This document shows, piece by piece, positions 314 through 6,830 of a DNA stretch of 7,390 bases. Below the pieces are notes generated by a model that was given only the letters and a program-made list of their open reading frames with translations, had not been told where the DNA came from and did not search any database. The stretch spans positions 1 through 7,390 of the forward strand of contig JACQUC010000245.1 in NCBI GenBank assembly GCA_016210495.1. Direction: 5' to 3'. The position numbers and the translations under genes were made by a program. This DNA is from Chloroflexota bacterium (GTDB lineage Bacteria > Chloroflexota > FW602-bin22 > JACPRP01). The stretch's first letter is position 1. Each line of letters opens with the position of its first letter.

Positions 314-658
314 CTAATTCTTGGTCCTCAGGCTTTCCAAATAGTGATGAACTTTCTCTTCCTCATCGGCCATAAACATAGTTATCTTGGCCATCCGATC
401 CCAATCCCTCGCCCAGTTCGCGTATTCGTTGGCGGGTGGCGCCGCGTGGCAGCTAGCACATCGCTGGACATAGATCTGCTCCACTGATCGTGTTGGGTCG
501 GGGGCTTCCTGCATAGCGTCCTTAGCGGATTGGTACAAGTATAGTATGCCCAAGCCGACGACGATTAGCGCCAGGATCATAAATAGCCACGTGCGGCCCT
601 TGAGGTGCATCGACTCGGCGGGTATTGCGTCGTTGAATGAATTGAGTTTCTCAGCCAT
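314..658 (-). CDS. Membrane-anchored small c-type cytochrome
   Basis: A 114-residue protein with one N-terminal membrane helix (about residues 23-42) and a short outward-facing domain carrying one covalent heme site, CASCH at residues 67-71. The helix lacks an obvious cleavage site, so it probably remains as an anchor. The axial histidine is H71; M89, M94 or M96 in the stretch DRMAKITMFMAD could be the distal ligand. The C-terminal helix (EEKVHHYLESLR) fits the closing helix of mono-heme cytochrome c domains. The domain after the anchor is only about 70 residues, near the lower limit for a class I cytochrome. The ATG at 658-656 directly abuts the TAA stop of the upstream hflK, with AGAGG just before it, which indicates tight translational coupling. 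It likely transfers electrons at the outer face of the membrane; the partner is unknown. Maturation requires a cytochrome c assembly system not seen here. Confidence 0.85.
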   Translation of the reverse strand: MAEKLNSFNDAIPAESMHLKGRTWLFMILALIVVGLGILYLYQSAKDAMQEAPDPTRSVEQIYVQRCASCHAAPPANEYANWARDWDRMAKITMFMADEEEKVHHYLESLRTKN

Positions 659-1876
659 TTACCTCTGCTCCAGAATGCGCAGGTTCACTTTCTCCCCATT
701 CTCGCCGGGGTCCACTACATATTTCTTGACCTTGGGCAGGATCTTCTCCATTGCTTCCACGTAGAGCCGATATCTCGTGACGTCTTCGGCTGAAGCCTGG
801 AGGCTGCGTTCGTATTCCGTGAAAGTATCCTCGAATCGTTTGGCCTCTCCTTTTGCCCGATTGGTAACGTCGGCCTTGTAGCCCTCGGCCTCGCGAATAG
901 CACGCTGCGCCTTGCCCCTTGCCTCGGGGACTATGCTGTTTTGATAGCCCTGGGCATCGTTGATCGCCTTGGCTCGATCCTCGCGGGCGCTGGCCACGTC
1001 GCGAAAGGCATCGGCCACTTCCTTCGGAGGGTTGACCTCTTGCAAGCTGATGTTCACCACCTGAAGCCCGCTTTCGTACTGGTCCAGCATCTTCTGCGTG
1101 TACCCTTCGAGCGCCTGCTGCAGTTCCGGGCGCCCGGTGGTCAGCAGATCGTCCACGTTGGTCCTTCCTCCCAGGGTCACCAGTGCGTCCTTGACGGCGT
1201 TGCGAATGAGTGGGTCGGCGCTGTAGGCGATCTTGAAGAGGTAGTCGGCGGGATCTTTCACCCGGTACTGCACGACTACCTTCGCGTTGATTATGTTCTC
1301 GTCGCCGGTCAGTATCTGGACGTCCTCGGGGGGATGGATATCCGTCGGGTGGTCGGGTATGGTAACCCCGATTCCCTCGCGACGGATCTGGGAGACGTTC
1401 ACTTTGTCGGCCTGTTCGATGGGCCAGGGAAGCCGATAGCGCAAACCCTCCCCCACGCGGCGATCGATCACCTGCCCGAAGCGCCTGACCACGGCCTCTT
1501 CGCCCGGGTTCACCACGTAGACACCGGACAAAACGTAGGCTGCTGCCAGAACGCCCAGAACTATGGTTTCCAGGTGCTGGTTGGTCAGAATGTGGCCGAA
1601 CGCGCCCCGAAGGTCCGCGGCGATAGTGCCCTCACCAGTTGCCAGCACCCGTGAGATCGAACTCCTAATCCCTGCCGCCATCATCCCCATCTGCCAGGCA
1701 AGCGATGTGGGATCAGGCTTCTCTTCCCCCTTTGCTGGGGAGTGCCCCTTGGGAGGATGGTGACTTGAGCTGGGCTCGCGCTCCTCCTTCCTCTGGAAGG
1801 ACTCATCCCACGGCAGTTCATCGTCGCCCGACTCAGGCACTGGACGTCCCCTGGAAGGTGTGAGATCCTCTTCCAT
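659..1876 (-). CDS. hflK: HflK-type SPFH membrane protein (second copy)
   Basis: A 405-residue HflK homolog, expected to assemble with HflC into a membrane cage that modulates the FtsH protease. A long charged, Pro/Ser-rich cytoplasmic N-terminus (residues 1-100) precedes one membrane helix (about 103-121, ending VLSGVYVVNPGEEAVV, the classic HflK entry into the SPFH domain). The family motifs follow: RYRLPWPIE (146-154), LTGDENIINAKVVVQYRVKDP (part of 189-209), and PPKEVADAFRDVASARED (283-300). A long helical region (about 300-360) follows, and the C-terminal LYVEAMEKILPKVKKYVV (371-388) is typical of HflK. Such proteins face the periplasm. The ATG at 1876-1874 has GGGAGG five bases upstream and starts 2 bases after the hflC stop. 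It differs from the upstream CDF-fused HflK by its long soluble N-terminus and an insertion around residues 168-185. Confidence in the family is very high. Confidence 0.95.
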   Translation of the reverse strand: MEEDLTPSRGRPVPESGDDELPWDESFQRKEEREPSSSHHPPKGHSPAKGEEKPDPTSLAWQMGMMAAGIRSSISRVLATGEGTIAADLRGAFGHILTNQHLETIVLGVLAAAYVLSGVYVVNPGEEAVVRRFGQVIDRRVGEGLRYRLPWPIEQADKVNVSQIRREGIGVTIPDHPTDIHPPEDVQILTGDENIINAKVVVQYRVKDPADYLFKIAYSADPLIRNAVKDALVTLGGRTNVDDLLTTGRPELQQALEGYTQKMLDQYESGLQVVNISLQEVNPPKEVADAFRDVASAREDRAKAINDAQGYQNSIVPEARGKAQRAIREAEGYKADVTNRAKGEAKRFEDTFTEYERSLQASAEDVTRYRLYVEAMEKILPKVKKYVVDPGENGEKVNLRILEQR

Positions 1877-1878
1877 GC

Positions 1879-2862
1879 TTACCTCCCGCCTGCCTGACCG
1901 GGTGAGGAAGGTCCGGCGGTGCTGGTGGCGCTACCGGGAACAATAGGGGACGTCGGTATCATAGCCGGAGTCTGGCCCTGCGGCCGATTCTGCACCTGGT
2001 TCAGGTACTTGAGAAGCTCCGAGTTAGAGGGCAGTACCACCGTGGTCTTGTCGTCGATGAACTTGCCGTAGGACTCCAGCGTGCGCAGGAACTTATAGAA
2101 CTCGGGGTCCTTGCCGTAGGCTTCGGCGTAGATGCGGATGGCCTCGGCGTCGCCCTCGCCTCGCAGCTTCTCAGCTTTAGCATAGGCTTCGGAAACGATC
2201 ACCCTCTGCTCGCGCTCGGCCTCGGCCCGAATCTTGGCCGACTCCTCGCTTCCCTCCGAGCGATACTTGCGCGCGATGGCCTCCCGCTCGCTCTTCATGC
2301 GGCTGAACACGGACAACCGGTTCTTCTCGGGGAAGTTCAGCAGCTTGGCCCTGACGTCGACCACTTTGATGCCGTATTTCTGGGCCTGGGTATCGCTTGT
2401 ACGCATCACATCCCCGAGCATTGCCGGCAGCTTCATCGCGCCCTGCTCGGTCGTCACCAGGGAAGCCAGTTCCTGCTTGCCGAGGGCCGTGCCGAGTCCA
2501 GAGGACACGATGTCTGCCAGCCGCGTCTCGGCCCGACTTCTATCCTGAAGGCTCTTCAAATACAGGATAGGGTCCGTGATGCGCCAGGCCACGTAGTTCT
2601 CCACCACGATGTTCTTCTTGTCGCTCGTCAGGAACTCGGCCTTGTTAGGGTTCAGCACCATTATCCGGTTGTCGTAGAAGGTGACGCTCTGGATAGGCTC
2701 GGGCCACTTCCATTGGAGTCCGGGCCGGGTAACCGCTTGGATCGGCTCGCCGAACTGAGTGACCACGGCGTACTGGGTCTCGTCGACCGAGAAGAAGATC
2801 AGGTTCCCGGCTAAAAATAGCAGGGTGGCCAGGACCAGGAACGGCACGATTTTGATTTTCAT
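1879..2862 (-). CDS. hflC: HflC-type SPFH membrane protein
   Basis: A 327-residue HflC homolog, the usual partner of HflK in the FtsH-modulating complex. An N-terminal signal-anchor helix (about residues 6-24) leads into the SPFH domain (VDETQYAVVTQFGEP, 26-40). The HflC signature blocks are present: NIVVENYVAWRITDP (84-98), NFPEKNRLSVFSRMKSERE (176-194), an Ala/Glu-rich helix (195-250), and the C-terminal DPEFYKFLRTLESYGK (252-267) followed by VVLPSNSELLKYL. A Pro/Ser/Gly-rich tail (about 291-327) extends beyond the usual family end. I chose the ATG at 2862-2860 because AGGAG lies 8 bases upstream and the membrane anchor starts there. The frame is open for another 75 codons upstream, but those residues are Arg/Pro-rich and unlike HflC, and they overlap the gene before. 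It is followed after 2 bases by hflK. Confidence 0.95.
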   Translation of the reverse strand: MKIKIVPFLVLATLLFLAGNLIFFSVDETQYAVVTQFGEPIQAVTRPGLQWKWPEPIQSVTFYDNRIMVLNPNKAEFLTSDKKNIVVENYVAWRITDPILYLKSLQDRSRAETRLADIVSSGLGTALGKQELASLVTTEQGAMKLPAMLGDVMRTSDTQAQKYGIKVVDVRAKLLNFPEKNRLSVFSRMKSEREAIARKYRSEGSEESAKIRAEAEREQRVIVSEAYAKAEKLRGEGDAEAIRIYAEAYGKDPEFYKFLRTLESYGKFIDDKTTVVLPSNSELLKYLNQVQNRPQGQTPAMIPTSPIVPGSATSTAGPSSPGQAGGR

Positions 2863-2870
2863 AAGTAAAC

Positions 2871-2875
2871 CTCCT
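2871..2875 (-). promoter_or_regulatory. Ribosome binding site of hflC
   Basis: AGGAG on the minus strand, 8 bases before the ATG at 2862. It decides the start of hflC against a 75-codon longer open frame reaching 3087, which has no comparable site and would overlap the end of the CDF-HflK gene. Confidence 0.85.
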
Positions 2876-2945
2876 GTCTGTTTATGTCTAATCAGGAAGA
2901 TCTCCCACAAACACTTGGCCAACGCCATCCGCGGCGGAAAGGGAT

Positions 2946-2983
2946 TTCGGGGGACACCCCCGAACCCCCGCCCTGTTGGGGCG
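2946..2983 (-). terminator. Tandem GC-rich hairpins between CDF-hflK fusion and hflC
   Basis: Two hairpins lie in the 128-base gap after the fusion gene. The first (2983-2969) has stem CGCCC/GGGCG and begins 7 bases after the stop codon. The second (2964-2946) has a perfect 8-base-pair stem TTCGGGGG/CCCCCGAA around a 3-base loop. Neither is followed by a proper T run; only CCCTTTCC follows the second on the minus strand. They may act as a partial terminator, a stop to 3' exonuclease, or a processing point that sets different levels of the fusion protein and HflC/HflK. A full termination role is unproven. I see no strong promoter in the rest of the gap. Confidence 0.5.
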
Positions 2984-2990
2984 TCGAGAA

Positions 2991-4601
2991 CTATCGCGAT
3001 CCGGAGTTCGGAGCGGGGGACGGCTGGCTTCCAGAGGGGCGTTGCTGCGGCAATTGCGGCAGAGCCGCGCCTTCGCCCACGAACCACAGGTCCACGGTGT
3101 TTTCTTTGATCTCCGGGCTGATCAGGAACTTTTTGACCTTGGGCAGCACCCTCTCCATTGCTTCCAGGTAAAGGCGCGTCAGAGTGACGTCCTTGGCTTT
3201 CGAGTACTCGACGACCTTGTCCTGGAAGCGCTGGGCGTCGCCCTGAGCGACGTTGATCTTCTCCGCACGGTAGGCTTCGGCCTCGCGCAACATCTTCTCC
3301 GCCTCGCCCCTGGCCTTCGGCACTATCTCGTTCTGGTACGCCAGCGCCTCGTTAATCACGGTGTTCTTGTCCTCACGGGCACTCGCCACGTCGACGAAGG
3401 CGTCCGCGACCTCCTTTGGTGGTGCTATGCTGATCAGTTGCACGTCCAGCACGCTGACACCCGCACGGTAACTGTCCAGAATCGACTGCAGTCGCTCTGC
3501 TGCGTGCGCTTCGGTTTCATCTCGGCCCGTCGTCAGGAGGTAGTCGATGTCCTTCTCACCCATTATCTGCCGTAGAGCGGTAGAAGCCGCGGAGCCCACT
3601 AGCTTGGTGGGATCGCTGACGCTGAAGATGTAGTCGGAGGCGTTGTTGATGTTGTACTGCACCGCCAGGCTCGCGGTTGCCAGGTTCTCGTCTCCTGTCA
3701 GGATCTCCGCGGAGGGAGTAGCGAAGCGCTTCACCTCCGCCACGTTGACGTTGGTCACGGCCTCGAACGGCCAGGGCAAGCGATAGTGCAGGCCGGGCCG
3801 CGCCTCACCCTGCTGCCACTGGCCGAACCGGAGAACGATGACCACCTCGCCGGGCTGGACAAAGTAGAAGCCAGAGAGAGCGTAGACTGCAACGAGCGCA
3901 GCGCCAAAGAGCCGCAGCATTCCGGCGGAGGGCTGCCAGGCGCTGCCCAGCAAGCCGTGCCCGTCCCTATGGAAGGAGGCATCATCTTGCGTCCCATACC
4001 CCCTTGGTCTGGCCAGGCGACGGGTGGCGTCGCCGAGGATGTGGTAGCCGGTGTAGGCGATGAAGAGGGCCACGAGCACGGCGGCCACCCGGTCGAGGGT
4101 GCGGAACCCGATCAGGTAGCCGAAAAGCCCGGCCACCACCACGACCGAGCTCCACATGTGCATCATAGAATGGTAGCCATCCGCTACCAGCGCCGGCGAG
4201 TTGGTCTGCTGTCCCACGTACAGCTTGAAGCGTCCCATGAAGTAGCTGATGGCAATAGTGACGAGCGATGCGAGCGCCACCACGAAGACGTTGGTCAGCT
4301 CATGCACGTGGCCGCCCACCGTCTGGGAGAACACGGTGTAGGCCATATAGAAGACGAAGATGGCCACGAAAAGGGCGACGGCGTGCTCGGTCTTTCCGGG
4401 CTTGCCTTCCTCCCGACGCTCCATTCTGGCAACGAACAGTCCAACCAGCACGACGCCGGTGACGAAGATGTCGGCCATCGAGTGCCAAGCGTCGGCGGTG
4501 AGGGCCATGCTGCCGGAGACGCGAGCCAGCAGGATCTTAATGCCGATGAGAAGCACGTTGGCCCCCATGGCGATCAGGAGAGTGTTCTCTTTCCTTCCCA
4601 C
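2991..4601 (-). CDS. Fusion of CDF transporter membrane domain and HflK SPFH protein
   Basis: A 536-residue protein joining two families in one open frame. Residues 1-195 are the six-helix membrane domain of a cation diffusion facilitator, a proton-coupled divalent-metal exporter family. Helices lie near 8-26, 32-57, 74-92, 102-121, 138-163 and 170-187. TM2 has TADAWHSMAD with the metal-site pattern H40-x3-D44; TM5 has ADGYHSMMH, H144-x3-H148, where the family normally has Asp at the last position. The usual C-terminal cytoplasmic CDF domain is missing. After a hydrophilic linker (about 193-228) a complete HflK follows: membrane helix 229-246, FVQPGEVVIVLRFGQ (247-261), LHYRLPWPFE (271-280), LTGDEN (301-306), PPKEVADAFVDVASARED (394-411), LYLEAMERVLPKVKKFL (477-493), and a Pro/Gln/Ser tail. 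The GTG at 4601-4599 is chosen for GGAGG four bases upstream; the next ATG (4568) lacks such a site and would cut TM1. The gene starts 36 bases after the isomerase stop. Confidence 0.9.
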   Translation of the reverse strand: MGRKENTLLIAMGANVLLIGIKILLARVSGSMALTADAWHSMADIFVTGVVLVGLFVARMERREEGKPGKTEHAVALFVAIFVFYMAYTVFSQTVGGHVHELTNVFVVALASLVTIAISYFMGRFKLYVGQQTNSPALVADGYHSMMHMWSSVVVVAGLFGYLIGFRTLDRVAAVLVALFIAYTGYHILGDATRRLARPRGYGTQDDASFHRDGHGLLGSAWQPSAGMLRLFGAALVAVYALSGFYFVQPGEVVIVLRFGQWQQGEARPGLHYRLPWPFEAVTNVNVAEVKRFATPSAEILTGDENLATASLAVQYNINNASDYIFSVSDPTKLVGSAASTALRQIMGEKDIDYLLTTGRDETEAHAAERLQSILDSYRAGVSVLDVQLISIAPPKEVADAFVDVASAREDKNTVINEALAYQNEIVPKARGEAEKMLREAEAYRAEKINVAQGDAQRFQDKVVEYSKAKDVTLTRLYLEAMERVLPKVKKFLISPEIKENTVDLWFVGEGAALPQLPQQRPSGSQPSPAPNSGSR

Positions 4602-4637: not shown

Positions 4638-6128
4638 TCAGTGCGCAGTTGGCGGCTCCGACTGATTGCCGATTACAGATGACTGACCGCTTGTTATCTC
4701 CTTTGAGAGCTCTATTACTCGGTTGTCGTAGACGACGAGCTTCATGCGTCGTGCGAGCTCGGCCTCCATGTCTCTTAGCGCGCGATCGTGCTTCTCGGCC
4801 AGTAGGTCCTCTCTGGCCACAGCCTTGGCCTGCTCGAAGGTGAGGAGCATTGACTCCTGTCTCTCACGCACGCGCACGATATAGTTGCTATCGCCCATTG
4901 CGATCAACGGGCTGGTCTCTCCTAGCTTCAGATCGAAGACCCGTTCCGTGAAATCGTGGGCCAGAGCGTGGCTCAGCGAATCATCCTGTCGAGTCAGCCA
5001 GCGATCCAAGTCGCCGCCCTTGGCCGCCGTCTCGGGGTCCTCGGAGAACTCCTTCGCCACTTCGGCGAAGGCATCGGGTCGGTCCCTGGCGGACTGCAGC
5101 CTCTTCGCCACCTCGTCGATGCGCTCTCGGGCTTTCTTGCGGCTGTCCTCGCTGAAGCCCATAGCCACTCGGATGTAGCTGATCTTGACCCTGGGCGGCG
5201 CGACGTAATGCGAGCGGTGCTGGTCATAGAACTTCTTGACCTCTTCGTCGGTCGCTTGCAGTTTGTCTTGCACCTCCTCCTGGTGGAGAATCTCGGCGAG
5301 GACATGCTGCCTGGCTTCCTCGATCTCCTTCTTATTCTTCACGTCCAGCATCTGGCTTGAAGCGGAGTCCAAGACGAGGAGTCTCTCTACGAGTCGATCG
5401 ACCAGCTCTTTCTTGGCATCGAGATCCCGATACCGGGCCTGCACGTCGGGCGGGAAGTTCTGGTACTCGTCGAGGAACTCTCCGAGCGTGAAGCGGCGCC
5501 CACGAATGGTAAAGAGTGTCTTCTCTTTGTTTCCTGCGTAGATCGCGGTCGCTCGTTCCTCCGCCAACTTTCGGCGGATCTCGTCCCGCACTTCGTCGAA
5601 GCTCCTCTTCCGCTCCCGGCGCCTTTCCAGCACCTTGACCACACGGTAAGAGTCCCCTTCCTTGAAAACCGGGCTGACCTCGCCTTCTCGAAGAGGAAAG
5701 ACCTTCTCGTCGAACTCCGGACCTCTCGCACCTCGCACAACCTCATCGGCGCCAATGCCTTCGGCAGGCGCGTTGGGGGGCGCGAGCTCCTGGGCGACCA
5801 TGGCGAAATCCTCTCCGGCCTGAACTCGCGCCAAGACTTTCTCCGCCTTCTGCGCGGCCTCTTGTTCCTTGTCCTTTGACGCGAACTCGAAGTGCACCTC
5901 CTGGACGCGCACCCGCTCCAACTCGCGAAAATCGGCTTGCCTGGCCAGGTAGTATGAGGTCAGTTCCTCCTCCATTAGGTCGGGTACGGCCAGCAGTTGG
6001 TAATCGACCGAGACACTGGCCCGGGCTCTGAGGTCCCGTAGATAGCCAGCGATGTAGTCCTTCTCCTTGGCAGCGTGCAAAGTCTCCCTGATGGAATCCC
6101 GGACCTCAGCCAGAGGGCGATTGCCCAA
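4638..6128 (-). CDS. Peptidyl-prolyl isomerase, C-terminal part with two parvulin domains
   Basis: This is the larger part of a SurA/PpiD-like foldase, 496 residues when read from a TTG codon at 6128. The first residues complete the N-terminal chaperone domain begun upstream. Parvulin domain 1 spans about 74-170 (VRVQEVHFEFASKD, then FDEKVFPLREGEVSPVFKEG and YRVVKVLERR). A helical insert (about 205-305) precedes parvulin domain 2 at about 313-424 (VKISYIRVAMGF, FAEVAKEFSEDPETAAKGGD, ERVFDLKLGETSPLI, NYIVRVRERQE). A short C-terminal helix and the tail SSVIGNQSEPPTAH follow. It is in the same frame as the upstream segment 6830-6135, from which only a TGA and two codons separate it. The TTG has GAGGAG 12 bases upstream but lies inside a hairpin, so independent initiation is doubtful. 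More likely the two parts were or are one 730-residue protein. Domain assignment is firm; expression as a separate protein is not. Confidence 0.8.
   Translation of the reverse strand: MGNRPLAEVRDSIRETLHAAKEKDYIAGYLRDLRARASVSVDYQLLAVPDLMEEELTSYYLARQADFRELERVRVQEVHFEFASKDKEQEAAQKAEKVLARVQAGEDFAMVAQELAPPNAPAEGIGADEVVRGARGPEFDEKVFPLREGEVSPVFKEGDSYRVVKVLERRRERKRSFDEVRDEIRRKLAEERATAIYAGNKEKTLFTIRGRRFTLGEFLDEYQNFPPDVQARYRDLDAKKELVDRLVERLLVLDSASSQMLDVKNKKEIEEARQHVLAEILHQEEVQDKLQATDEEVKKFYDQHRSHYVAPPRVKISYIRVAMGFSEDSRKKARERIDEVAKRLQSARDRPDAFAEVAKEFSEDPETAAKGGDLDRWLTRQDDSLSHALAHDFTERVFDLKLGETSPLIAMGDSNYIVRVRERQESMLLTFEQAKAVAREDLLAEKHDRALRDMEAELARRMKLVVYDNRVIELSKEITSGQSSVIGNQSEPPTAH
4658..4685 (-). repeat. 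Degenerate 7-base tandem repeat
   Basis: Four tandem heptads on the minus strand read CAGTCAT, CTGTAAT, CGGCAAT and CAGTCGG (4685-4658). The consensus resembles CAGTAAT-type 7-base repeats that I recall from intergenic DNA of some bacterial genomes; I cannot search to confirm. The repeat overlaps the last codons of the isomerase gene and encodes an uncharacteristic tail (SSVIGNQSEPPTAH). This suggests the repeat invaded or expanded at the gene's 3' end. Confidence 0.55.
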
Positions 6129-6134: not shown

Positions 6135-6830
6135 TCAGCTCTCCTCGTAGTACTTCTGTATGTCCGCCTCGTCCACCCTGATTTGACTCTGATGAATCTG
6201 GGCGCCGACGTCGTGAAGGTTTATCTCCTCGGCCACGTGTTTCATCGCGTGCTGGACGCTGTTCTTCTCGTCCAACTGTCGTTCTTTGGCCCAACGCTCG
6301 ACGACTCGGTGGACGGCGATATCCTGCACCAGATGTCGCAGGCCATCAGGGGAAGCCAGGGCTTTTCGATCACGCTCCGGAAGGGAATCCAGGGTTGCCA
6401 GGAGCTCCTCTTTGGTAATGGTGCCATCGTTGTAGGTGGCCACCACGTTCTTGTCGTCGGGTTCCGGCCAGAGCCAGGTTCCCAGGTTCTGCCAGACAAA
6501 CCAGATAAGTACAAGCCCGCCGACCAAAATCAAAGCTTGCCTGATATCAAAGCGTCTGCCACTTCCCTGGCTTGTTTCCTCATCTTTCTGTCCCGATGCC
6601 GCGGCAGGTTCGGGCAGGTCCTCCTCGCCAGGCACCGGCTCGGCAGCGCGAGGAGATGGTTCGGATGGAATTGAGCCGATGGGTCGGGCCTGGTCCTCAT
6701 CTGCGGTTGGCGCAGCGGTCGAAGACCCCGCGCTTAACCCATGGTCTTCGACTTTTGGAGCCGTCCCCTGCTCGCCGCTTCGCAGGGCTGCCTTGAAATC
6801 CTCTATCGCTTGTTTGATTACCTCGCGCAC
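6135..6830 (-). CDS. Peptidyl-prolyl isomerase/chaperone, N-terminal part ending at in-frame TGA
   Basis: These 231 residues are the front of a membrane-anchored SurA/PpiD-like foldase. Residues 1-97 form a hydrophilic, Pro/Ala/Glu-rich cytoplasmic segment, long for the family. One membrane helix spans about 98-115 (LILVGGLVLIWFVWQNLG). The extracytoplasmic SurA_N-like domain begins VVATYNDGTITKEELLATLD (129-148) and continues with DGLRHLVQDIAVHRVVERWAKERQL. It breaks off at IQKYYEES, in the middle of a typical helix. The next codons after TGA continue the family pattern in the same frame (ERLGNRPLAEVRDSIRETL), so the stop is internal to the ancestral gene. The start is GTG at 6830-6828, right after an in-frame TAG, with GGAG ten bases upstream; no in-frame ATG precedes the membrane helix. 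If terminated here, the product would be an anchored fragment without either isomerase domain. Confidence 0.8.
   Translation of the reverse strand: MREVIKQAIEDFKAALRSGEQGTAPKVEDHGLSAGSSTAAPTADEDQARPIGSIPSEPSPRAAEPVPGEEDLPEPAAASGQKDEETSQGSGRRFDIRQALILVGGLVLIWFVWQNLGTWLWPEPDDKNVVATYNDGTITKEELLATLDSLPERDRKALASPDGLRHLVQDIAVHRVVERWAKERQLDEKNSVQHAMKHVAEEINLHDVGAQIHQSQIRVDEADIQKYYEES

What the first reader, a model, noticed from the sequence alone, without database searches (positions are those of the whole stretch)
2991..4601. Metal-transporter membrane domain fused to a complete HflK
One open frame joins a six-helix CDF domain lacking its own C-terminal domain to a full HflK with its own membrane helix. 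The topology fits: CDF proteins have both ends in the cytoplasm, and adding the HflK helix as a seventh puts the SPFH domain outside, where HflK normally sits. The SPFH part therefore does not replace the cytoplasmic CDF regulatory domain. If the HflK part enters the HflK/HflC ring, several CDF units would be arrayed around FtsH. That would link metal flux or sensing to membrane proteolysis. I do not know of a described function for this architecture, though the fusion may already exist in databases unremarked.
Basis: partly seen in the sequence, partly recalled or inferred. Interest (0 to 1): 0.8.

Follow-up and report, generated by a model that had tools for sequence, protein, structure and literature searches.

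The report
Metal exporter built into HflK scaffold
A bacterial membrane protein joins a zinc-type metal exporter to HflK, a subunit of a large membrane scaffold, and other bacteria join the same scaffold subunit to quite different metal exporters, which points to a widespread and apparently undescribed metal-efflux machine.

Summary
Window 2991-4601 (-) is one 536-aa frame: a six-helix CDF domain without the CDF C-terminal domain, a cytoplasmic linker, and a complete HflK with its own membrane helix. Relatives carry the same fusion in 17 bacterial phylum-level groups and one archaeal bin, so it is not an assembly error. The CDF metal site is kept (His-Asp/His-Asp in 149 of 177 rows; window clade His-Asp/His-His). 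It belongs to a conserved module: parvulin foldase, CDF-HflK, HflC, second HflK, often with a heavy-metal P-type ATPase. 46 of 46 testable loci show three SPFH frames, against two in 9 of 10 ordinary hflKC loci. Most telling, related HflKs are fused to other metal exporters: P1B-ATPases, SO_0444 Cu/Zn exporters and another CDF.

Best reading: a metal-efflux machine in which HflK arrays the exporter in or around an SPFH assembly, releasing metal on the side where the dome sits. Its link to FtsH proteolysis has no specific support: FtsH lies outside the module in 12 of 12 genomes. Assembly and transport were not tested. Ten full-text searches found no description.

The parts
2991..4601 (-). CDF-HflK fusion protein, 536 aa, GTG start
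4011..4601 (-). CDF transmembrane domain, residues 1-197, six helices
   Evidence: PF01545; AF2 helices; YiiP match
4482..4484 (-). His40, TM2 metal-site residue
   Evidence: alignment
4470..4472 (-). Asp44, TM2 metal-site residue
   Evidence: alignment
4170..4172 (-). His144, TM5 metal-site residue
   Evidence: alignment
4158..4160 (-). His148, TM5 metal-site residue, Asp in most relatives
   Evidence: alignment
3927..4010 (-). cytoplasmic linker, residues 198-225, His-rich across the family (2 His in the window)
3876..3926 (-). HflK membrane helix, residues 226-242
2994..3875 (-). HflK SPFH domain, long helix and C-terminal part, residues 243-536
1879..2862 (-). HflC, 327 aa, ATG at 2862
   Evidence: TIGR01932 212.3 bits on the longer ORF 1879-3087; start read
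659..1876 (-). second HflK (K2), 405 aa, ordinary single-helix form
   Evidence: TIGR01933 241.8 bits; K2 branch; E. coli HflK match
4638..6128 (-). parvulin-type foldase, C-terminal piece
   Evidence: PF13145/PF13616/PF00639; matches residues 237-714 of the 718-aa foldase of L008
6135..6830 (-). same foldase, N-terminal piece with a hydrophobic stretch (frame broken in the window)
   Evidence: matches residues 1-233 of the foldase of L008
314..658 (-). small protein with a hydrophobic stretch and one CxxCH, cytochrome c-like; membership of the module unsure
   Evidence: CxxCH read; PF13442 only below cut-off (18.8 of 27 bits); no convincing match among the ORFs of the related loci

Best explanation
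The protein is the exporter subunit of a metal-efflux machine. Its CDF domain carries a divalent metal ion, most likely Zn2+ or a close relative, out of the cytoplasm. The HflK half builds that exporter into an SPFH assembly made with HflC and the second HflK, whose dome lies on the outer face of the membrane. Exporters are thus arrayed at fixed places in or around one scaffold, and metal is released at the foot of the dome. The cytoplasmic linker, His-rich in most relatives, probably gathers or senses the metal, replacing the lost CDF regulatory domain. The second HflK would share positions with the fused one and so dilute and space the bulky exporters. The membrane-anchored foldase looks after proteins on the outer face. 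Shown: the fusion, its conservation, metal-site residues, topology signal, gene company, change of exporter type among related HflKs. Inferred: transport, assembly into one dome, release inside or beside it, linker function, role of K2 and of the foldase.
For: Metal site: HDHD at positions 40/44/144/148 in 149 of 177 aligned rows, HDHH 8 (the window, counted twice, its near relatives and two others), HGHH 8, HDHE 8 and 4 single or gapped cases. CDF half more conserved than the SPFH half in close relatives (window against L008: 85.1% and 70.3%). Linker with at least 2 His in 149 of 176. Exporter change: HflK fused to P1B-ATPase (L061, L064, L067; PF00702 plus PF01145 in 120 of 120 listed hits, 108 of them also PF00122), to SO_0444 Cu/Zn exporters (L068, L071; 115 of 120 listed) and to another CDF (L055). 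In the tree, the P1B, SO_0444 and L055 HflKs share a branch (97; it also holds the long-branched CDF fusion L052), the main CDF-HflK set is another (24 of 28 CDF rows, 97), and a P1B-ATPase fusion (P0360) sits inside the SO_0444 set (96). One origin is rejected for the ATPase fusions (p-AU 9e-7) and for the SO_0444 fusions (p-AU 8e-4) (groups named after the tree was seen). Company: three SPFH frames in 46 of 46; foldase in 33 of 35; heavy-metal P-type ATPase in 18 of 35; any metal-handling gene sought in 22 of 35; 0 of 10 control loci had foldase or ATPase. ATPases beside the alphaproteobacterial fusions show CPC plus ADTGAT; the best-scoring equivalog for that of L040 is the Zn/Cd/Hg/Pb ATPase. 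A plasmid predicted to be conjugative carries the module among copper-handling genes and a heavy-metal P-type ATPase. An unfused P1B-ATPase directly follows an SPFH trio twice in one genome.
Against: No transport or assembly was measured. 17 of 35 well-covered loci have no P-type ATPase in reach and 13 of 35 have none of the metal genes sought. The neighbour profiles were built from genes of these same loci, which favours finding them there. Six alphaproteobacterial loci (L040, L041, L043, L044, L057, L062) are close kin, so the counts are not independent. HtrA is no commoner than in controls (6 of 35 against 2 of 10). Of six kinases tested, three score best with the heavy-metal sensor model, all below its cut-off, and the others score best with WalK or EnvZ models. 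The L040 ATPase does not reach the curated cut-off (846.7 of 1005 bits). The window itself shows no ATPase and no regulator among its ORFs. Its clade has His for the fourth site Asp, and 8 of 177 rows lack the TM2 Asp, so some members may not transport. Among distant relatives the CDF half is not always the better conserved one (L040: 40.7% against 45.9%).
Confidence: 0.55

Rival explanations
1. Metal-responsive FtsH adaptor: the fused exporter is mainly a sensor or an anchor, and the SPFH assembly around FtsH changes its proteolysis of membrane proteins, metal transporters included, when metal is high.
For: The fused HflK is closest in structure to E. coli HflK (37% identity), which in E. coli forms a cage around FtsH (PMC12048511, passages seen). 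FtsH is present in 12 of 12 genomes. In 7 of 12 genomes no hflK over the cut-off was found outside the module (several are draft genomes).
Against: FtsH lies outside the module in all 12 genomes; it also rings in 11 of the 14 control genomes of that call, so its presence says little. 5 of 12 genomes have a separate hflK over the cut-off. A sensor role does not explain why P1B-ATPases and SO_0444 exporters are fused in the same place.
Confidence: 0.22
2. Membrane microdomain only: HflK serves as a clustering tag that brings exporter, ATPase and foldase into one patch, with no closed dome and no luminal role.
For: SPFH proteins are described as microdomain organisers (abstracts listed); the exporter type varies.
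Against: Three SPFH frames are present in 46 of 46 testable loci, and the long helix of HflK is kept in the model, which points to a defined assembly and not to a loose tag.
Confidence: 0.15
3. Metal-loading chamber: exported metal is delivered in the dome to outer-face metalloproteins with the help of the foldase, as in cytochrome oxidase maturation, and not merely expelled.
For: SCO proteins in 5, PCu(A)C in 7 and CopC/D-like in 2 of 35 loci; foldase in 33 of 35; a cytochrome c-like gene in the window; copper and oxidase-assembly genes flank the plasmid module.
Against: The copper genes are a minority; the CDF site and the ZntA-like ATPases point to divalent metals (recalled motifs); I found no client protein tied to the module across phyla, and did not search for one systematically.
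Confidence: 0.08

Closest known systems
HflK-HflC complex of E. coli (FtsH modulator)
   Same: SPFH domain, long helix and order hflK-hflC; 37% identity of the HflK half.
   Different: A six-helix metal exporter replaces the HflK N-terminus; three SPFH genes in place of two; foldase and often a metal ATPase alongside; FtsH not in the module.
CDF zinc transporters (YiiP/FieF, ZnT)
   Different: No cytoplasmic C-terminal domain, with HflK in its place; window clade has HDHH at the site.
CTD-less CDF proteins
   Same: No C-terminal domain; said to exist in PMC4994047 (passage seen).
   Different: In that passage they are said only to lack the domain; no SPFH partner is mentioned.
Stomatin domes enclosing AQP1 and UT-B (PMC12407830; abstract and section 8 read)
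   Same: An SPFH ring surrounds a membrane transporter.
   Different: There the partner is a separate protein and, on my recollection, stomatin lies on the cytoplasmic side; here the exporter is part of the SPFH chain and the dome should face outward.
P1B-ATPases and SO_0444 family exporters
   Same: Exporters of soft metal ions; they take the same N-terminal place in other HflK fusions.
   Different: Different protein families from CDF.

Membership tests
HflK (TIGR01933) | Score over the curated cut-off | tested here: met
   255.6 against 159.4 bits
HflK (TIGR01933) | Own membrane helix, SPFH on the outer face | tested here: met
   helix 226-242; positive-inside count 14 to 4; a prediction only
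HflK (TIGR01933) | Forms a ring or dome with HflC around FtsH | not testable with these tools
   HflC and K2 are adjacent; no assembly or FtsH contact was tested
CDF family (TIGR01297, PF01545) | Score over the curated cut-off | tested here: met
   99.0 of 82.35 bits; 92.4 of 26.6 bits
CDF family (TIGR01297, PF01545) | Four-residue transport site in TM2 and TM5 | tested here: inconclusive
   H40, D44, H144 kept; fourth residue is His148 in the window clade, Asp in most relatives
CDF family (TIGR01297, PF01545) | Cytoplasmic C-terminal dimerisation domain (most members) | tested here: not met
   PF16916 not reported for the fusion but found in two unfused relatives; not universal in the family (PMC4994047)
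CDF family (TIGR01297, PF01545) | Metal/proton antiport | not testable with these tools
   no assay
FtsH-associated modulator system | Physical or genetic link to FtsH | tested here: inconclusive
   FtsH in 12 of 12 genomes but outside the module

The most novel reading that the evidence does not exclude
A new kind of efflux machine: an SPFH dome whose wall subunit is itself the metal exporter, so that ions are discharged into a walled compartment on the outer face of the membrane, kept from re-entry and handed on from there. The exporter cartridge has been exchanged several times in evolution (CDF, P1B-ATPase, SO_0444) while the dome trio HflK-HflC-HflK2 stayed.
Probability: 0.3. Interest if true: 0.92.

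Novelty: new variant of a known kind. Interest (0 to 1): 0.77.

Why it matters
HflK/HflC are known mainly as modulators of FtsH. A broad set of fusions with three classes of metal exporter says that HflK paralogues serve metal transport in many phyla, and gives a direct handle on an open question: whether bacterial SPFH domes enclose and organise transporters. Because the exporter is covalently joined, its place relative to the dome can be fixed by one structure, and its role tested by one deletion. It also shows that proteins named 'FtsH protease activity modulator HflK' can carry a whole metal exporter.

Tried and rejected
Assembly artefact or chance read-through: rejected, since relatives at 87, 75 and 75% identity (P0003, P0004, P0005) and loci from 17 bacterial phylum-level groups have the same fusion.

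Degenerate CDF kept only as an anchor: considered, because the window clade has His148 for Asp. Not favoured, since three of four site residues are kept and the CDF half is the better conserved half among close relatives.

Copper as the general substrate: first suggested by the plasmid context, then weakened, because copper genes are a minority, the neighbouring ATPases whose motifs could be read are mostly ZntA-like or P1B-4-like (types assigned from recalled motifs) and the CDF site is of the zinc type (recalled).

FtsH contact residue: PMC12048511 cites HflK Arg191 (passage seen), but by my count along the PDB chain position 191 is Ala and 193 is Arg, so I drew no conclusion.

Plasmid hits: 49 records matched, one of them over at least 80% of the query. 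Besides that one I opened four of the partial hits (H2, H5, H8, H21); they are hflK-hflC pairs of ordinary length, one with nhaA directly adjacent and one with nhaA a few kilobases away.

Prevalence: in 301 sampled Chloroflexota genomes two had the full-length match, one of them the centre genome chosen because it has the fusion (L008) and the other, by its contig, that of L001 (at most 8 candidates per genome were scored). The fusion is thus patchy. Rfam, promoter, repeat and tRNA tools were not used.

Errors and limits of mine: searches used wrong coordinates for the window HflC (1879-2860), so that query or row was meaningless there; corrected. In the tree L048_3980 was labelled K2 but groups with HflC, which inflates the K2 change count. 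That tree is a quick one (SH-aLRT only, 24 of 91 inner branches under 80), and L052 has a long branch. Four of 28 CDF fusions (L048, L051, L052, L053) fall outside the main CDF-HflK branch. The ORF picker hid the fusion in L003, L039, L042 and L047 behind antisense ORFs; the six-frame search replaced it. The SPFH profile was built from fused HflKs only and missed one annotated SPFH gene in control L081, so 'three' counts frames that it can see. Controls are 10 loci that I chose (L059, L063, L066, L069, L072, L074, L079-L082; four are plasmids); L058, L060, L070, L073, L076 and L077 were left out as short or unclear. The 120 proteins and 56 loci overlap in part. L055 (157.8 bits) and L071 (158.6) fall just under the hflK cut-off of 159.4, L055 is under the CDF cut-off (76.1 of 82.35), and L051 is far under the hflK cut-off (61.6).

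Full report
WHAT IS THERE. The window carries a run of genes on the minus strand with short gaps: a parvulin-type foldase (two pieces, 6830-6135 and 6128-4638), the fusion (4601-2991), HflC (2862-1879), a second HflK (1876-659) and a small cytochrome c-like protein (658-314). The fusion is a single 536-aa frame. Residues 5-196 match the CDF family and 245-497 match HflK, both over the curated cut-offs. No CDF C-terminal domain was reported; two unfused relatives found later do have it.

THE TRANSPORT SITE. In 177 aligned rows (120 proteins, 56 loci and the window, with some overlap) the four site residues read HDHD in 149; HDHH, HGHH and HDHE each occur in 8, and 4 rows are odd or gapped. The window and its nearest relatives have HDHH. 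That HDHD suits zinc is recalled knowledge. The linker between the halves is rich in His: 11.9% against 1.7% overall, with at least two His in 149 of 176. Among close relatives the CDF half is better conserved than the SPFH half (85.1% against 70.3% for L008), although in distant ones such as L040 the order reverses (40.7% against 45.9%).

SPREAD. 119 of the 120 listed homologues carry both domains. A scan of one genome per species, capped at the 80 best of 114 confirmed matches, gave 75 loci, of which 55 hold the fusion; a plasmid (L078) makes 56. The labels cover 17 bacterial phylum-level groups and one Altiarchaeota bin; most are metagenome bins, but isolates are included, among them Aminobacter, Nitratireductor, Chelativorans, Anaerospora, Desulfosporosinus and a Vibrio. 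It is patchy: among 301 sampled Chloroflexota genomes only the chosen centre and one other had the full-length match. A plasmid of Aquibium oceanicum, predicted to be conjugative, carries the whole module.

THE MODULE. In 46 of 46 fusion loci with at least 2.6 kb downstream there are exactly three SPFH frames. In 35 loci with at least 4.5 kb upstream and 6 kb downstream I found the foldase in 33, a heavy-metal P-type ATPase in 18, a response regulator in 20, a histidine kinase in 19, HtrA in 6, PCu(A)C in 7, SCO in 5 and CopC/D-like in 2; 22 had at least one of the ATPase, SCO, PCu(A)C or CopC/D. Ten ordinary hflKC loci had no foldase, ATPase, regulator, kinase or copper gene; two had HtrA; nine showed two SPFH frames and one showed one. 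The neighbour profiles came from these same loci, which biases the comparison towards them. In six related alphaproteobacterial loci the order is regulator, kinase, CDF-HflK, HflC, HflK2, foldase, ATPase. Their ATPases carry CPC and ADTGAT; L014 and L015 carry HEGST (with SPC seen in L014). By recollection these are the zinc/cadmium and cobalt/iron types. Of six kinases and three regulators tested, three and two score best with the heavy-metal models, below the cut-offs; the rest score best with WalK, EnvZ or OmpR models.

OTHER EXPORTERS ON HflK. The strongest evidence came from relatives that lack this CDF. L061, L064 and L067 encode a heavy-metal P1B-ATPase fused to HflK, and the contig-cut L054 and L065 look the same; L068 and L071 encode an SO_0444 Cu/Zn exporter fused to HflK; L055 a different CDF fused to HflK (L055 and L071 fall just under the hflK cut-off). 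The first two are large families: 120 of 120 listed hits have PF00702 plus PF01145, 108 of them also PF00122, 115 of 120 have PF03773 plus PF01145 (the other five: three short proteins with no exporter domain, one with PF00202, and P0360 with a P1B-ATPase). In a quick tree of 94 SPFH domains the main CDF-HflK set (24 of 28 CDF rows) has support 97; the P1B, SO_0444 and L055 HflKs share a branch with support 97, which also holds the long-branched CDF fusion L052; most second HflKs share a branch with support 95; P0360 sits inside the SO_0444 set (96), and L071 sits among the second HflKs. L048, L051 and L053 fall elsewhere, with less certain places. One origin is rejected for the P1B fusions (p-AU 9e-7) and for the SO_0444 fusions (p-AU 8e-4), with the caveat that the groups were named after the tree was seen. 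So the exporter type differs, and has been exchanged, among closely related HflKs. What the scaffold keeps is metal export, not a particular fold. The second HflKs of the main CDF modules form a branch of their own (12 rows, 96), as do those of the P1B and SO_0444 modules with L055 (8 rows, 96, one of them the fused L071), as expected if the subunits stay together.

AN UNFUSED FORM. The genome of L034 holds two further trios in which a 643-aa HflK-like protein, HflC, a second HflK and a separate P1B-ATPase follow each other within 3 to 21 bases. Pfam was run on one of the two operons; the two ATPases were compared with fused and neighbouring ones by BLAST (31-40% identity). The ATPase thus also travels unfused.

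FtsH. FtsH is present in 12 of 12 genomes but not in the module; 5 of 12 also have another hflK over the cut-off. A link to FtsH is neither shown nor excluded.

READING. I take this as a metal-efflux machine in which the exporter is built into an SPFH assembly. A dome that encloses a transporter has a structural precedent in stomatin with AQP1 and UT-B (PMC12407830, abstract and section 8 read). Whether metal is released inside or beside the dome is open.

LITERATURE. Ten full-text searches listed no paper whose title or abstract start describes the fusion; the search for HflK with 'cation diffusion facilitator' and 'fusion' and that for HflK with 'P-type ATPase', 'zinc' and 'fused' returned none. 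Passages only were seen of PMC2636767, where 'cation', 'transporter' and 'fused' do not occur, PMC13086221, where 'fused', 'fusion', 'cation' and 'P-type' do not occur, PMC12005517, PMC13220708, PMC12048511 and PMC4994047. The library holds open-licence papers only.

Noticed in passing
window 6135-6830 and 4638-6128 (-): The foldase is one 718-aa protein in L008 but is split by a frame break in the window; an assembly error or a true lesion.
   Followed up: partly
window 314-658 (-): Small protein with a hydrophobic stretch and one CxxCH directly after the second HflK; no convincing match among the ORFs of the related loci.
   Followed up: partly
L061:5931-9002, L064:5640-9068, L067:1418-4435: Heavy-metal P1B-ATPase fused to HflK; 120 of 120 listed hits have PF00702 plus PF01145, named ones including Blastocatellia and Bryobacteraceae.
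   Followed up: yes
L068:6840-8930, L071:615-2708: SO_0444 family Cu/Zn exporter fused to HflK; 115 of 120 listed hits.
   Followed up: yes
L086:2-6052 and L087:136-6180 (-): Two similar operons in one Lentisphaerae genome: 643-aa multi-helix HflK-like protein, HflC, second HflK, unfused P1B-ATPase.
   Followed up: partly
L083:2251-3438, L084:2454-3731: CDF with its own C-terminal domain plus a dinitrogenase FeMo-cofactor-type domain (PF02579), an odd architecture, in two Chloroflexota genomes.
   Followed up: partly
L081:9971-13340: Vibrio plasmid with hflK-hflC-nhaA in a row; a Roseibium plasmid (L079) also has nhaA a few kilobases from hflK-hflC. Perhaps another transporter tied to HflK/C.
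   Followed up: no
L051:7995-9674, L053:7989-9683: Divergent CDF-HflK in Vibrio and Photobacterium with three SPFH frames but no foldase or metal ATPase found by the profiles; linkers without the usual His cluster.
   Followed up: partly
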